A DNA stretch of 64,000 nucleotides from Paradevosia shaoguanensis (GTDB taxonomy: Bacteria > Pseudomonadota > Alphaproteobacteria > Rhizobiales > Devosiaceae). Shown one piece after another: positions 11,420 through 16,912 of this stretch. The position numbers and the translations under genes are program-made. Numbering within the stretch: position 1 is the first letter of the stretch; every line of letters starts with the position of its first letter. The notes under the pieces are model-generated. The model worked only from the letters and a program-made list of their open reading frames with translations. It was not told the DNA's origin and ran no database searches. Location: assembly GCF_016801025.1 (NCBI RefSeq), contig NZ_CP068983.1:496001-560000 (forward strand), written 5' to 3'.

Positions 11420-12268
11420 ATGCCCGAAGCGCCAGCCACCAGCCCCGAGCAAGACCTCGAACTCTTGCGCTCGACCGCCGTCGGGGCGGGTATCATTGCC
11501 TCGGGTTACTTTCGTCGCAACCTCAAGACCTGGACCAAGGAAAACGCCTCGCCGGTGAGCGAAGCCGATATCGTGCTCGACAAGTTCCTGCACTCCTCGC
11601 TTCTCGCCGCCCGGCCGCATTACGGCTGGCTGAGCGAAGAGAGCGTGGACGACCTGGAGCGGCTCAAGCATGACCGGGTGTTCGTGGTCGATCCCATCGA
11701 CGGCACGCGCGGCTTCATCCGTGGCGAGGACAGCTGGACGGTGAGCGTTGCGGTGGTGGAGCATGGCGTGCCGGTGGCCGGCGTCGTCTATGCGCCGGCG
11801 CGTGACGAGCTTTATGACGCGAGCATCGGCGGGGGCGCACGGCTTAACGGCAAACCCATCGTAAGAGCGGCGCAGCCGGGGCGCTCGGCGGTGATCCCGG
11901 CGCCGGGCGCGGTGCACCAGGAATTGCAGGATGCGGGCCTCAGCTACACGCGCGGGCCTTACTATCCCTCGCTGGCCTATCGGCTGGTGCAGGTGGCAAC
12001 GGGCAAGCTCGACGCCGTCGTGGCGCGGCGCGGTTCGCAGGATTGGGATATTGCGGGGGCGGCCATCATTCTCGCCGAAGCCGGCATCGGCTTTGAGGAT
12101 GTGTGCGTGGGCAAGCCCCGTTTCAACATGACCGATGTGCGCCATGGGGCGCTTGCGGCGCTCAGCGACGAGTCGCTAAAACCTGTCGTCCACAAGGCGC
12201 TGCGCCGCATCTATGGCTGCCCCGCCGAAACCGAAATCACCGCCGACCTCGAAAGGCGCACGCAATGA
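11420..12268 (+). CDS. Inositol monophosphatase / 3'(2'),5'-bisphosphate nucleotidase family phosphatase
   Basis: A 282-residue Mg-dependent, Li-sensitive type phosphatase. Metal-binding motifs are visible: SEES (E of the first site), VVDPIDGTRGFI (the DPIDGT signature) and QDWDIAGA (C-terminal aspartate). CysQ enzymes remove the 3' phosphate from PAP or PAPS in sulfur assimilation; others use inositol phosphates. Linkage to DUF4170 by an ATGA overlap matches rhizobial genomes, where this gene starts an envelope-lipid cluster. The ATG at 11420 gives the normal family length; the longer upstream open frame is not needed. Confidence 0.85.
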   Translation: MPEAPATSPEQDLELLRSTAVGAGIIASGYFRRNLKTWTKENASPVSEADIVLDKFLHSSLLAARPHYGWLSEESVDDLERLKHDRVFVVDPIDGTRGFIRGEDSWTVSVAVVEHGVPVAGVVYAPARDELYDASIGGGARLNGKPIVRAAQPGRSAVIPAPGAVHQELQDAGLSYTRGPYYPSLAYRLVQVATGKLDAVVARRGSQDWDIAGAAIILAEAGIGFEDVCVGKPRFNMTDVRHGALAALSDESLKPVVHKALRRIYGCPAETEITADLERRTQ

Positions 12269-12504
12269 GCGAAGAGAACCAGCAGCAGCTTCTGCACCTC
12301 GTCATCGGCGGCGAGCTGTCCGACCTGGAATCGGTGACGTTCAAGGACCTCAAGGCGGTCGATATCGTCGGGGTCTATCCCAACTACGCGGCGGCCTACG
12401 ACGTGTGGAAGCAGAAGGCGCAGCAGACGGTGGACAATGCCGAGATGCGGTATTTCATCGTGCACCTGCACCGGCTGCTGGATCCGGAAGCGGTCAAGCC
12501 GTAA
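12265..12504 (+). CDS. DUF4170 family protein
   Basis: A 79-residue acidic soluble protein. The pattern HLVIGGELSDLESVTFKDL...VGVYPNYAAAYDVWKQKAQ...DNAEMRYFIVHLHRLLDP is that of DUF4170, a small alphaproteobacterial family next to lipopolysaccharide-core genes. The function is unknown. The start codon overlaps the phosphatase stop (ATGA), so they are translationally coupled. Confidence 0.85.
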   Translation: MSEENQQQLLHLVIGGELSDLESVTFKDLKAVDIVGVYPNYAAAYDVWKQKAQQTVDNAEMRYFIVHLHRLLDPEAVKP

Positions 12505-12862: not shown

Positions 12863-13993
12863 TTATGGCTCCAGGAGGCGTTGGACGATTTTGGCGGCGG
12901 CGCCGAAGGGGCCCAGTCGCTCGGCGCCGATTTCGCCGCGGCGTGTGCGTTCTGCGCTGTCGGAGAGCAGGCGTGCGGTTGCGGTCGCCAATGCGGTTGC
13001 GTCCTGGGGGACCAGTTCGCGGGATTCGCCCATCAGGGCCTGTTCGTCGGCCATGCGCTTGCGGCGATTGTCGGGGCGGTCGAAGGTGATGACGGGGCGG
13101 CCGAGGCCGAGGGCCTGCTGGGTAGCGGTGCCGGCCTGGGAGAGCACGACATCGGAGGCTTCGATCAGGTTGCCGGTCACGCCGGTGGCGAGGTGGAGCG
13201 TGAGGCCGTCGCCGGCGAGCGTGCCGAGGTCGGCGGTTTCGCCTGAAGTCGGTGGTTGATGGGTGAGGCCCGTAGCCTGCGCGAGCGTGGTGGGGGCGAT
13301 GCCGCCGGCGACCGCGACGAAGATGTCGGGACGCAGGTCGGGCGGCAGTTGGCGCAGGGCGTCGACCTGAAGCGCCAGGCTCTCGCCGGTGGTGGCGCGG
13401 CTGCCGGGAAGGAGCGTGACGGCCAGCGGGCGGGTACGGCGCGCGGTGGCGTCGTATTGGCCGTAGGTGGTGGTGTCGAGCATGACATTGCCGGCGGCGC
13501 GGGCGTCGATGCCGGCGCGTGCGAGGGTTTCGGCCAGCATGGCGTCACGGGTGAAGACGGTCTTGCAGGTGCGGCGGATCAGCCAGCGCTCGGGGGCGGA
13601 ATAGGTGTGGGCGAAGCCGGACTTGAAGACGTCCAGATAGACGTCGATCGGCAGGCCCGCTAGGAGGCAGAGGATGGGGCCGACATTGTCGCCGACTACA
13701 ACCACCTTGTCGTAGCGCCCGCGGGCCGAGCGCAGGAAGCTCAAGGCCGGGCGAATGCTCGAGAGCATGCCGCCCCTGACATCGCGGGCGACCGAACCCT
13801 TCGTGTGCCGCCAGCCCTCGGAGGGAATATCGAAGCGCGGGCCGACCAGCGGCGCCAGCCCCTCATAGGCGCGGCCCTGGCCGACCACCGGGTAGGCGTC
13901 GGCGACATGGCCCGCGGGCAGGCGCGAGATGATCTCGGCGGCGATGGAATCTTCGCCATTGCCGTTGGCGATGAAGAGGAAGCGCGCTGTCAT
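12863..13993 (-). CDS. LpxB-like glycosyltransferase paralogue 1
   Basis: A 376-residue GT-B glycosyltransferase related to lipid-A-disaccharide synthase. Family marks are the start ARFLFIANGNGEDSIAAEII, VTLLPGSR (the LpxB LLPGSR motif), GNVMLD, and ASDVVLSQAGTATQQALGLGRPVITF for the sugar-nucleotide site. It is closer to the LpxB-related group of cyanobacteria than to true LpxB, so the acceptor is unknown. The start is the ATG at 13993; upstream in-frame ATGs would only add a low-complexity leader. The paralogue at 14031 ends 37 bases upstream on the same strand. Together they lie between DUF4170 and DUF2093. Confidence 0.8.
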   Translation of the reverse strand: MTARFLFIANGNGEDSIAAEIISRLPAGHVADAYPVVGQGRAYEGLAPLVGPRFDIPSEGWRHTKGSVARDVRGGMLSSIRPALSFLRSARGRYDKVVVVGDNVGPILCLLAGLPIDVYLDVFKSGFAHTYSAPERWLIRRTCKTVFTRDAMLAETLARAGIDARAAGNVMLDTTTYGQYDATARRTRPLAVTLLPGSRATTGESLALQVDALRQLPPDLRPDIFVAVAGGIAPTTLAQATGLTHQPPTSGETADLGTLAGDGLTLHLATGVTGNLIEASDVVLSQAGTATQQALGLGRPVITFDRPDNRRKRMADEQALMGESRELVPQDATALATATARLLSDSAERTRRGEIGAERLGPFGAAAKIVQRLLEP

Positions 13994-14030
13994 GGGCGCA
14001 GTTAGGCCGCTCGTACCGGGCTTGGCAAGC

Positions 14031-15170
14031 TCAGGCAACAATGCCTTCCACCACCTCGCGGATCGCACCGGCTCCGCCGACACGTTCGCGGGCGATTGCC
14101 CCGATCCGCGCCCGCTCGTCGGGATTGGCGATCAGCACGCGCAGGGCCTGCGACACGCTGCCGACTTCGGGAAGCGTGACGATACGGGCGATGCCGAAAA
14201 GCCCCTGCTCGTCGCGGTAGCGCGCACCGCGATCGCGGAAGGAGCGGAAGTTGATGACCGGACGGCCGAGGCCGATAGCCTGGACGGTGGCAGTATCTGC
14301 CTGCGACAGCACGATATCGGATGCCTCGATGAGATTGCCCAGCGCCGAACCTCTGGCCATGTGGACGGTGAGGCGCTCGTCGCGCAGGGTGGAGAGATCG
14401 CCCGACTGGCCGGTGAGAAGGCCCGAGCGGTGGAGCTTGGCGGCCTTGGCGAGATCGTCGATGGAGACGGACCCGGCCACGGCGAGGAAGATATCGGGCA
14501 GATCCTGCGGCGGGAGGGCGCGGAGGGCGTCCATCTGCAGCGCGAAGCTCTCGCTGTTGCCGGCACGGCTGCCGGGGAGGAGCGTGACGGCGGTCGGTTG
14601 GGTGCGGCGGGCCATGGCGTCGTAGTCGCCATAAGGGACGCAATCCATGAGGACGTTGCCGACCGAGCGAGCCTGGTGCCCATCGGCGCGAAGGGACGCG
14701 GCGAGCTCTTCGTGGCGGCAGAAGGTCAGCGCGACGGTGTGGCCGATCAATTGCCGCTCAACGGCGGTATAGGGCCGGGCGTGGCCGGTGCGGTGGAGAT
14801 CGAGGTAGATGGCCTCGCGGATGCCGGCGGCCCAGCAGCCGGCGAGCGCTGCGACATCGCCCACGACGACGACGCGATCATAGCTCCTGCGGACGCGGCG
14901 GAGAAATTGCACGCCGGGCCAGAAGGCCCGCACGTTGTTGAGGCCGAAATCGTGCGGCACGGAAAAGCGCGGACGCCGCCAGCGCGGCATCTGCGCGCGC
15001 GGACCCACGAGAGGACAGAGACCATGATAGGCCGTGCCTTCTCCCACCGCCGCATAGGCTTCCACGATGAAGCCTTCAGGCAGCCGGCGAATGATCTCGG
15101 CTGCGACCGAGTCTTCTCCGGAACTGGTGGAAACGAAAAGCAGGCGCCGCGGACCGGACGCTTCGGTCAC
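14031..15170 (-). CDS. LpxB-like glycosyltransferase paralogue 2
   Basis: A 379-residue tandem paralogue of the gene at 12863. Shared features are RRLLFVSTSSGEDSVAAEIIRRLP at the N-terminus, VTLLPGSRAGNSESFALQMDALRALPP, GNVLMDCVPYGDYDAMARR and NLIEASDIVLSQADTATVQAIGLGRPVINF. Similarity runs from end to end, so this is a gene duplication rather than two fragments. The second copy has ADTAT where paralogue 1 has AGTAT, a change in the donor-binding loop that could alter sugar choice. No signal peptide; probably peripheral on the inner membrane. It starts 5 bases after the DUF2093 stop, so DUF2093 and both transferases look like one operon. Confidence 0.8.
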   Translation of the reverse strand: MTEASGPRRLLFVSTSSGEDSVAAEIIRRLPEGFIVEAYAAVGEGTAYHGLCPLVGPRAQMPRWRRPRFSVPHDFGLNNVRAFWPGVQFLRRVRRSYDRVVVVGDVAALAGCWAAGIREAIYLDLHRTGHARPYTAVERQLIGHTVALTFCRHEELAASLRADGHQARSVGNVLMDCVPYGDYDAMARRTQPTAVTLLPGSRAGNSESFALQMDALRALPPQDLPDIFLAVAGSVSIDDLAKAAKLHRSGLLTGQSGDLSTLRDERLTVHMARGSALGNLIEASDIVLSQADTATVQAIGLGRPVINFRSFRDRGARYRDEQGLFGIARIVTLPEVGSVSQALRVLIANPDERARIGAIARERVGGAGAIREVVEGIVA

Positions 15171-15175
15171 GGCGG

Positions 15176-15397
15176 TCAGCCGTTCAGGCCATAACGCTGA
15201 TAGGCCTGGTAGGCGGCGGTGGCATCGGCGTAAGGCTCCTGCCGATCGACGCTCCAGTAGCTGAGTTCGTCAACCGGAATGGGCTTGCCCGTGATGGCGC
15301 AGCGCACGAAGCTGCCGGGCTTCATGACCACGAAGTCGCCATCGAGATAGCGGATTTGTGCTTCCGAAGGGGTGAACCCCTTATCGAAGATATTCAT
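15176..15397 (-). CDS. DUF2093 family protein
   Basis: A 73-residue protein recognised by MNIFDKGFTPSEAQIRYLDGDF, PGSFVRCAITGKPIPVDELSYWSVDRQEPYA. The family is alphaproteobacterial and, as I recall, commonly sits beside lpxK in rhizobia. The function is unknown. It is the first gene of the minus-strand set that continues with the two LpxB-like genes, and it lies 72 bases downstream of xseA. Confidence 0.85.
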   Translation of the reverse strand: MNIFDKGFTPSEAQIRYLDGDFVVMKPGSFVRCAITGKPIPVDELSYWSVDRQEPYADATAAYQAYQRYGLNG

Positions 15398-15469: not shown

Positions 15470-16912
15470 TCAAAAGAGGTCCGGCTGCTCATCATCACGG
15501 TCTTGCGAGGAACGCGGCTTCTTGGGCTTAACGGAAGGTAGAGGCCGCCCCGACGGCCCTGCCCCCTCGCCCACGGTCACCGGCACCTCGCCATCGGCGA
15601 ATTCGATGCGCAGGGCATCGCCTTCCGCCAGGAACTCTCTGCCGCGCACGAGCTCGCCGCCCGCATCCTTGACGATGGCATAGCCGCGCGCCAGCACAGA
15701 CTTGTAGCCCAGCGTCAGCAGCAGCTTGCCGAGGCTGTCGATGCGCTGGCGACGGTCCGAGACCATGCGCTTGAACGCCGGTTCGGCGCGCGCCGCGACG
15801 GGATCGTAGCGCAGCCGGGCGCGATGCACGGTGGCTTCGAGCGTCGACAGCGAGAGGCGCGAGGTGACGCGCGCCAGCTGGATTTCCTTGATCTGCTTGG
15901 CGTGCCGCAGGGCGGCCAGCAGGTTCGAGGAGGCGTGGTCGAGCCGCTGCTGGGCGGTGGCGATGAGGTCGGCCGGGCGAGGCAATCCCGCCGACGCCGC
16001 CCGCAGCCGGTCGCGATAGTTCGAGAGAATCCGCCGCGCCGCCATGCGCTGGCGCGCGCCCTGGTCATCGACATAGGCGATGAGTTCGGAGCGCACCGGC
16101 ACCGCCGCCTCGGCTGCCGCCGTGGGGGTGGGCGCGCGCATATCGGCGGCGTAGTCGATGAGGGTGGTGTCGGTCTCGTGGCCCACCGCCGAGATGATGG
16201 GAATGCGGCTCGCCGCCACGGCGCGCACCACCATTTCCTCGTTGAAGCCCCAGAGGTCTTCGATGGAGCCGCCGCCGCGCGCGACAATCAGCAGGTCCGG
16301 CCGTGCGATGGGACCGTCCTCGGGCAGCGCGTTGAACCCGGCAATGGCCGCCGAAACTTCCGGTGCGCAGGTATCGCCCTGCACGCGCACCGGCCAGACG
16401 ATGACGTGCGTGGGAAAGCGGTCTTCGAGCCGATGGAGGATATCGCGGATCACCGCGCCGGTCGGCGAGGTCACGACGCCGATGACGCGCGGCAGATAGG
16501 GCAGCGGGCGCTTACGCTCTTTGGCGAAGAGCCCTTCCGCTGCCAGCTTCTTGCGCCGCTCCTCGACCAGCGCCATCAGCGCGCCGGCACCGGCCGGCTC
16601 GATGTTCTCGATGACGATCTGGTATTTGGACGAACGCGGGAAGGTCGTCAGGCGCCCCGAGGCGATGATCTCCAACCCTTCCTCGGGCTTGAAAGCCAGC
16701 CGGGCAAAGCTGCCACGCCAGACCACCGCGTCGATCGAGGCGTCGGCATCCTTGAGCGTGAAATAGGCATGCCCGGACGAATGCTGCCCGCGATAGCCCG
16801 AAATCTCGCCGCGCACGCGCACATAGTCGAAATTCTCCTCGACGGTGCGGCGAACGGCCTGGGCGATCTCGGAGACGGTATATTCGGCAGCGTTGGTGAG
16901 TTGTTCGGCCAT
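15470..16912 (-). CDS. xseA: Exodeoxyribonuclease VII large subunit
   Basis: A 480-residue cytoplasmic nuclease subunit that, with several XseB copies, degrades single-stranded DNA. An N-terminal OB fold (about 10-105) contains VRVRGEISGYRGQHSSGHAYFTLKD. The catalytic core has VIGVVTSPTGAVIRDIL, IARGGGSIEDLWGFNEE and SAVGHETDTTLIDYAADMRAPTPTAAAE, all family signatures. A coiled-coil region (about 290-400) precedes the C-terminal segment that ends with a charged, variable tail. xseB is not in the window. Confidence 0.96.
   Translation of the reverse strand: MAEQLTNAAEYTVSEIAQAVRRTVEENFDYVRVRGEISGYRGQHSSGHAYFTLKDADASIDAVVWRGSFARLAFKPEEGLEIIASGRLTTFPRSSKYQIVIENIEPAGAGALMALVEERRKKLAAEGLFAKERKRPLPYLPRVIGVVTSPTGAVIRDILHRLEDRFPTHVIVWPVRVQGDTCAPEVSAAIAGFNALPEDGPIARPDLLIVARGGGSIEDLWGFNEEMVVRAVAASRIPIISAVGHETDTTLIDYAADMRAPTPTAAAEAAVPVRSELIAYVDDQGARQRMAARRILSNYRDRLRAASAGLPRPADLIATAQQRLDHASSNLLAALRHAKQIKEIQLARVTSRLSLSTLEATVHRARLRYDPVAARAEPAFKRMVSDRRQRIDSLGKLLLTLGYKSVLARGYAIVKDAGGELVRGREFLAEGDALRIEFADGEVPVTVGEGAGPSGRPLPSVKPKKPRSSQDRDDEQPDLF

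What the first reader, a model, noticed from the sequence alone, without database searches (positions are those of the whole stretch)
12863..15397. Two LpxB-like paralogues in the place usually held by waaA and lpxK
Seen: phosphatase, DUF4170, two tandem LpxB-related glycosyltransferases, DUF2093. From memory of rhizobial genomes, the span between DUF4170 and DUF2093 normally holds waaA (Kdo transferase) and lpxK (lipid A 4'-kinase). Inference: these core lipid A genes have been replaced or moved, and the outer leaflet may carry a different glycolipid made by this pair. A loop change (AGTAT vs ADTAT) suggests the two copies use different donors or acceptors.
Basis: partly seen in the sequence, partly recalled or inferred. 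Interest (0 to 1): 0.78.

Follow-up and report, generated by a model that had tools for sequence, protein, structure and literature searches.

The report
Glycosyltransferases replacing lipid-A Kdo genes
In this bacterial family (Devosiaceae) the gene that phosphorylates lipid A is gone and, in most members, so are those that make and attach its first core sugar, Kdo; here two relatives of the lipid-A-building enzyme LpxB sit exactly in their place, probably attaching a different first sugar and giving an outer membrane with a non-standard endotoxin.

Summary
Between DUF4170 and DUF2093 lie two reverse-strand genes of the uncharacterised family TIGR03492 (distant LpxB homologues, GT-B fold); four relatives read in the same order have waaA-lpxK there. 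The replacement is real: this complete single-contig genome keeps lpxA, C, D, I and B but has no LpxK, WaaA or KdsA. LpxK is missing from all 101 Devosiaceae genomes searched, while LpxC is in all 36 tested. TIGR03492 is in 67/101, usually one copy, usually in this slot. A Kdo set (KdsA plus a divergent WaaA) occurs in 13/101, in the same slot where read, never with TIGR03492; 21 have neither. In distant phyla TIGR03492 lies beside lpxC-lpxA-lpxB. Most likely it puts a non-Kdo sugar directly on 4'-unphosphorylated lipid A; this is inference without biochemistry. The copies are not a recent duplication: A is canonical; B has lost near-invariant residues yet is under purifying selection. The backbone is therefore still lipid A; its 4'/6' decoration has changed. 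Weak points: the Kdo/TIGR03492 exclusion rests on two independent contrasts, 21 genomes have neither, and one lipid-A-less control genome carries TIGR03492.

The parts
11420..12268 (+). Inositol-monophosphatase/CysQ-like phosphatase, conserved left flank of the slot
   Evidence: PF00459 144 bits; synteny in Devosiaceae and relatives
12265..12504 (+). DUF4170, left border of the waaA-lpxK slot
   Evidence: PF13773 83 bits; synteny
12863..13993 (-). Gene A: canonical TIGR03492 glycosyltransferase (376 aa)
   Evidence: TIGR03492 181 bits; family residues kept; GT-B model pLDDT 91; dN/dS 0.12
14031..15170 (-). Gene B: divergent TIGR03492 paralogue with NG to TS and G to D changes (379 aa)
   Evidence: TIGR03492 122 bits; changes shared with G154 and absent from the single-copy sequences read; dN/dS 0.11
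15176..15397 (-). DUF2093, right border of the slot, 5 bases upstream of gene B and probably in one transcript with it
   Evidence: PF09866 80 bits; synteny
15470..16912 (-). xseA, exodeoxyribonuclease VII large subunit, conserved right flank
   Evidence: TIGR00237 448 bits

Best explanation
SHOWN: the genome encodes the lipid A pathway up to the disaccharide (LpxA, C, D, I, B) but has no detectable Kdo8P synthase, lipid A 4'-kinase or Kdo transferase; two TIGR03492 genes occupy the place of waaA-lpxK. INFERRED: the TIGR03492 proteins are UDP-sugar-dependent GT-B glycosyltransferases that attach a sugar other than Kdo directly to the 4'-unphosphorylated disaccharide (6'-OH or 4'-OH), starting the LPS core in place of WaaA and removing the need for LpxK. 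Gene A is the canonical enzyme. Gene B, with altered nucleotide-side loops, adds a second or different sugar, or is a non-catalytic partner.
For: No LpxK, WaaA or KdsA in a complete genome with ringing controls; LpxC and LpxB present; LpxK 0/101 and LpxC 36/36 in the family; same slot as waaA-lpxK in relatives; TIGR03492 and the Kdo module never co-occur (0 of 13 against 67 of 88) and in g98 both use the same slot; TIGR03492 lies beside lpxC/lpxA/lpxB in several distant phyla without LpxK or WaaA in the stretch; Synechococcus elongatus has the same gene pattern and cyanobacterial LPS can carry GalA at C4' and Glc or GalA at C6' instead of phosphate and Kdo (PMC4515613); homology to LpxB and GT-B fold with the PGSR and Thr phosphate contacts kept.
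Against: 21 of 101 Devosiaceae genomes have neither TIGR03492 nor Kdo genes, so the step is dispensable or done otherwise. The mutual exclusion rests on only two independent contrasts on the tree. Deinobacterium chartae has TIGR03492 without an LpxB or LpxC match. In one Pelagibacterium the gene lies in a polysaccharide cluster instead. TIGR03492 has Gln where LpxB and many GT-B enzymes have the ribose-binding Glu. No biochemistry exists; acceptor and donor are guesses.
Confidence: 0.55

Rival explanations
1. TIGR03492 makes another envelope glycolipid or polysaccharide precursor unrelated to lipid A; it landed in the slot emptied by loss of waaA-lpxK by chance, and Devosiaceae lipid A stays bare or is finished by other enzymes.
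For: TIGR03492 in the LPS-less control Deinobacterium chartae; Devosiaceae with neither module; gene inside a Wzy/Wzz/UDP-sugar-dehydrogenase cluster in Pelagibacterium sediminicola.
Against: Repeated adjacency to lpxC-lpxA-lpxB in unrelated phyla and use of the same slot by a Kdo module.
Confidence: 0.25
2. The two proteins replace LpxK rather than WaaA: they cap the 4' position with a sugar, and a different enzyme starts the core at 6'.
For: Marine Synechococcus lipid A carries GalA at C4' in place of phosphate (PMC4515613); LpxK is absent in every TIGR03492-positive Devosiaceae genome searched.
Against: Kdo-positive Devosiaceae also lack LpxK but have no TIGR03492, so the gene tracks absence of WaaA, not of LpxK.
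Confidence: 0.14
3. LpxK, WaaA and Kdo synthesis are present but too diverged for the HMMs, and lipid A is normal.
For: The WaaA of Kdo-positive Devosiaceae is only about 27% identical to relatives' WaaA, so enzymes can diverge far in this family.
Against: That divergent WaaA was still found at 122-166 bits; KdsA, an easily detected enzyme, is absent from the same genomes; in g5 genomes the slot is empty.
Confidence: 0.06

Closest known systems
Four-enzyme lipid A pathway (LpxA, C, D, B only) of Cyanobacteria and Dictyoglomi (Opiyo et al. 2010, PMC3087551)
   Same: Lipid A disaccharide made without LpxK or WaaA; TIGR03492 present in the Synechococcus elongatus control.
   Different: In Devosiaceae it is secondary, by loss within Alphaproteobacteria whose relatives keep waaA-lpxK; TIGR03492 sits in the vacated slot; lpxI is present.
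TIGR03492, lipid-A-disaccharide synthase-related protein (hypothetical equivalog)
   Same: Full-length match, family motifs SNGxGED, PGSR and GTAxxQ (gene A).
   Different: Below the curated cut-off; Devosiaceae form their own branch; gene B lacks NG and the Gly of GTA.
LpxB, lipid A disaccharide synthase
   Same: Homologous over 335 columns (98.8%); PGSR and the phosphate-binding Thr kept.
   Different: No Pfam LpxB match; Gln for ribose-binding E281; a separate true LpxB exists in the genome.
WaaA (KdtA), Kdo transferase
   Same: Proposed role (first core sugar on lipid A), same chromosomal slot, GT-B class.
   Different: No PF04413 domain match; no KdsA in the genome, so the donor must differ.

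Membership tests
TIGR03492 | score over the curated cut-off (219.2 bits) | tested here: not met
   A 181, B 122 bits; no Devosiaceae member reaches it
TIGR03492 | full-length profile coverage and family-invariant residues (GED, PGSR, Gln of GTAxxQ) | tested here: met
   Profile 1-394 and 1-392 of 396; alignment A3. Gene B misses the near-invariant NG and Gly
LpxB | PF02684/TIGR00215 match | tested here: not met
   No match for A or B; only one PF02684 place in the genome, elsewhere
LpxB | active-site set S17/D98/PGSR/T277/E281 | tested here: not met
   PGSR and Thr present, E281 replaced by invariant Gln, S17 region differs
WaaA | PF04413 Kdo-transferase domain | tested here: not met
   No match in A or B, none in the genome
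UDP-sugar GT-B glycosyltransferase | GT-B fold | tested here: met
   AlphaFold model pLDDT 91; best PDB matches GlgM, UDP-GlcNAc 2-epimerases, MurG
UDP-sugar GT-B glycosyltransferase | sugar transfer activity, donor and acceptor | not testable with these tools
   Needs enzyme assay
Four-enzyme (Kdo-free, LpxK-free) lipid A pathway | LpxA, LpxC, LpxD, LpxB present; LpxK and WaaA absent | tested here: met
Four-enzyme (Kdo-free, LpxK-free) lipid A pathway | no Kdo synthesis | tested here: met
   KdsA absent from the genome; KdsB and KdsD not searched
Four-enzyme (Kdo-free, LpxK-free) lipid A pathway | late acylation and export route (LpxL or LpxJ, MsbA, Lpt) | not tested
DUF374 (LpxJ-family) genes lie in the slot of some other Devosiaceae

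The most novel reading that the evidence does not exclude
TIGR03492 is the missing, widespread core-initiating glycosyltransferase of Kdo-free LPS (Cyanobacteria and Melainabacteria, Armatimonadetes and others) and was recruited in Devosiaceae to replace the whole LpxK-WaaA-Kdo branch, giving a secondarily Kdo-free, 4'-phosphate-free LPS in Alphaproteobacteria.
Probability: 0.42. Interest if true: 0.85.

Novelty: new variant of a known kind. Interest (0 to 1): 0.7.

Why it matters
LpxK and WaaA with Kdo are near-universal steps of lipid A assembly in Proteobacteria. A whole family that keeps lipid A synthesis but has dropped LpxK, and mostly Kdo too, is a natural experiment on which steps are really needed, and it makes the open question of who glycosylates Kdo-free lipid A directly testable in cultured Devosia. 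It also gives an uncharacterised protein family a concrete function to test, and predicts an endotoxin without 4'-phosphate or Kdo in common soil and marine bacteria.

Tried and rejected
'Genes merely moved': rejected by whole-genome HMM searches with ringing controls. 'Loss of all lipid A, as in other LpxK-minus lineages of the order': rejected, LpxC is present in all 36 Devosiaceae tested while 24 of 26 other LpxK-minus genomes lack it. 'Recent tandem duplication': rejected, A groups (moderate support) with G056/G160/Pelagibacterium-type sequences and B with the Devosia branch. 'B is a pseudogene': rejected by dN/dS about 0.11 and conservation in the sister species. 'Kdo-positive Devosiaceae keep the ancestral WaaA': doubtful, about 27% identity to relatives' WaaA against 43-53% among those relatives. 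Plasmid search by tblastn: no match. No paper on Devosia lipid A and LpxK or on TIGR03492 was found in the held library. Naming the host genus failed: its own record may be left out of the named collection.

Full report
OBSERVATION. A and B are 48% identical. Both match NCBIfam TIGR03492 end to end but under its cut-off, and neither matches Pfam LpxB. Profile comparison nevertheless shows homology of TIGR03492 with LpxB over 335 columns (98.8%, E 6e-17). The model of A (pLDDT 91) is a GT-B fold closest to glycosyltransferases, UDP-GlcNAc 2-epimerases and MurG.

IS IT A REPLACEMENT? The genome is one 4.63 Mb contig, 100% complete. It has LpxB, LpxC, LpxA, LpxD and LpxI, but no LpxK, WaaA or KdsA, although the LpxK and WaaA searches ring in E. 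coli, Caulobacter and Bacteroides. In 150 genomes of the order, WaaA and LpxK are lost together. Twenty-four of the 26 LpxK-minus genomes outside the family also lack LpxC and so probably make no lipid A; the two exceptions are fragmented drafts. The window's family is the clear exception: LpxC in 36/36 tested, LpxK over cut-off in 0/101. Named hits identify the family as Devosiaceae (Devosia, Pelagibacterium, Cucumibacter, Maritalea).

WHAT FILLS THE SLOT. TIGR03492 is in 67/101 Devosiaceae genomes, almost always between DUF2093 and DUF4170 in the loci read; two full copies were seen only in this genus (G000, G154). Thirteen genomes (twelve of genus g98 and G152) have KdsA, and exactly the same thirteen have WaaA; none has TIGR03492 (naive Fisher p 1e-7). 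In the g98 genomes read, the Kdo module (WaaA, KdsD/KpsF, KdsB, KdsA, Wzy_C protein, PMT_2 transferase) sits in the same DUF4170-DUF2093 slot. Its WaaA is only about 27% identical to relatives' WaaA, so it is very diverged or re-acquired. The remaining 21 genomes have neither; in the TIGR03492-minus g5 (Pelagibacterium) genomes read, DUF4170 and DUF2093 abut. On a species tree the Kdo state lies on two lineages, so the exclusion gives only two independent contrasts. I count it as suggestive, not proof.

INDEPENDENT CONTEXT. Outside Devosiaceae, TIGR03492 homologues in Armatimonadetes, Melainabacteria, CPR1, UBP9 and rumen bacteria lie beside lpxC, lpxA or lpxB, often with an ICMT-like methyltransferase and a metallophosphatase; no LpxK or WaaA was hit in those stretches. 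The control Synechococcus elongatus has LpxB, LpxC and TIGR03492 and lacks LpxK and WaaA. Cyanobacteria are described as having only the four-enzyme pathway and LPS without Kdo or phosphate (PMC3087551), with galacturonic acid at C4' and glucose at C6' in marine Synechococcus, and galacturonic acid at C6' in Oscillatoria planktothrix FP1 (PMC4515613). Against a purely lipid A role, the control Deinobacterium chartae has TIGR03492 but gives no LpxB or LpxC match.

THE TWO COPIES. LpxB uses E15/S17/D98, P198-G199-S200-R201, T277 and E281 (PMC5785501). TIGR03492 keeps PGSR and the Thr, has an invariant Gln where LpxB has E281, and 'SNGxGED' where LpxB has 'GExSGD'. Gene A keeps the near-invariant residues. 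Gene B, in both species of the genus, has TS for NG and D for the Gly before the phosphate-contacting Thr; the single-copy Devosiaceae sequences keep NG and G wherever the motif was found. Both genes are under purifying selection (dN/dS about 0.12 and 0.11). On the gene tree they are not sisters: B groups with Devosia-type sequences on a long stem, A with G056/G160/Pelagibacterium-type sequences (support for A's wider group is moderate). Likely history (inference): B is the native copy, A arrived later or survived as an old paralogue, and B then changed function.

MECHANISM. Most likely a UDP-sugar-dependent transfer of a first, non-Kdo sugar to the 4'-unphosphorylated lipid A disaccharide. 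The genome and slot facts are shown; enzyme activity, donor, acceptor position and the role of B are inferred. Late acylation could proceed without Kdo through LpxJ-type (DUF374) enzymes, of which the earlier characterised members do not require Kdo (PMC6148475), and DUF374 genes do sit in the slot of several Devosiaceae; whether this genome has one was not tested.

VERDICT. New variant of a known pathway; the enzyme assignment is plausible, not proven.

Noticed in passing
order-level handles G004, G014, G022, G036-G038, G047, G051, G055, G066, G068, G111 and others (24 genomes): Several Hyphomicrobiales lineages outside Devosiaceae lack LpxC, LpxK and WaaA together and so probably have no lipid A at all.
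   Followed up: partly
L137 7536-8804 (+), L139 7832-9088 (+): Kdo-positive Devosiaceae carry a WaaA about 27% identical to relatives' WaaA, next to a full Kdo set and without any LpxK: a Kdo transferase that presumably works on 4'-unphosphorylated lipid A.
   Followed up: partly
L217 7684-10107 (-), L220 7520-9970 (-), L219 2967-4205 (+): LpxB fused to a second, diverged LpxB-like half (about 807-816 aa) in rumen bacteria, and a stand-alone LpxB-like protein in CPR1, in the same clusters as TIGR03492.
   Followed up: no
L074 8405-9568 (+): In Pelagibacterium sediminicola TIGR03492 is not next to DUF2093 but among Wzy_C, Wzz, Caps_synth, UDP-sugar dehydrogenase and epimerase genes.
   Followed up: partly
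L210 5986-7114; G244:C1:135210-136318: TIGR03492 is split into two reading frames in some Devosia genomes, either decay or sequencing error.
   Followed up: no
L071 10087-10809 (-), L069 9164-9910 (-), L117 4891-5586 (+): DUF374 (LpxJ-family acyltransferase) genes sit beside DUF4170 in several Devosiaceae, hinting at Kdo-independent late acylation.
   Followed up: partly
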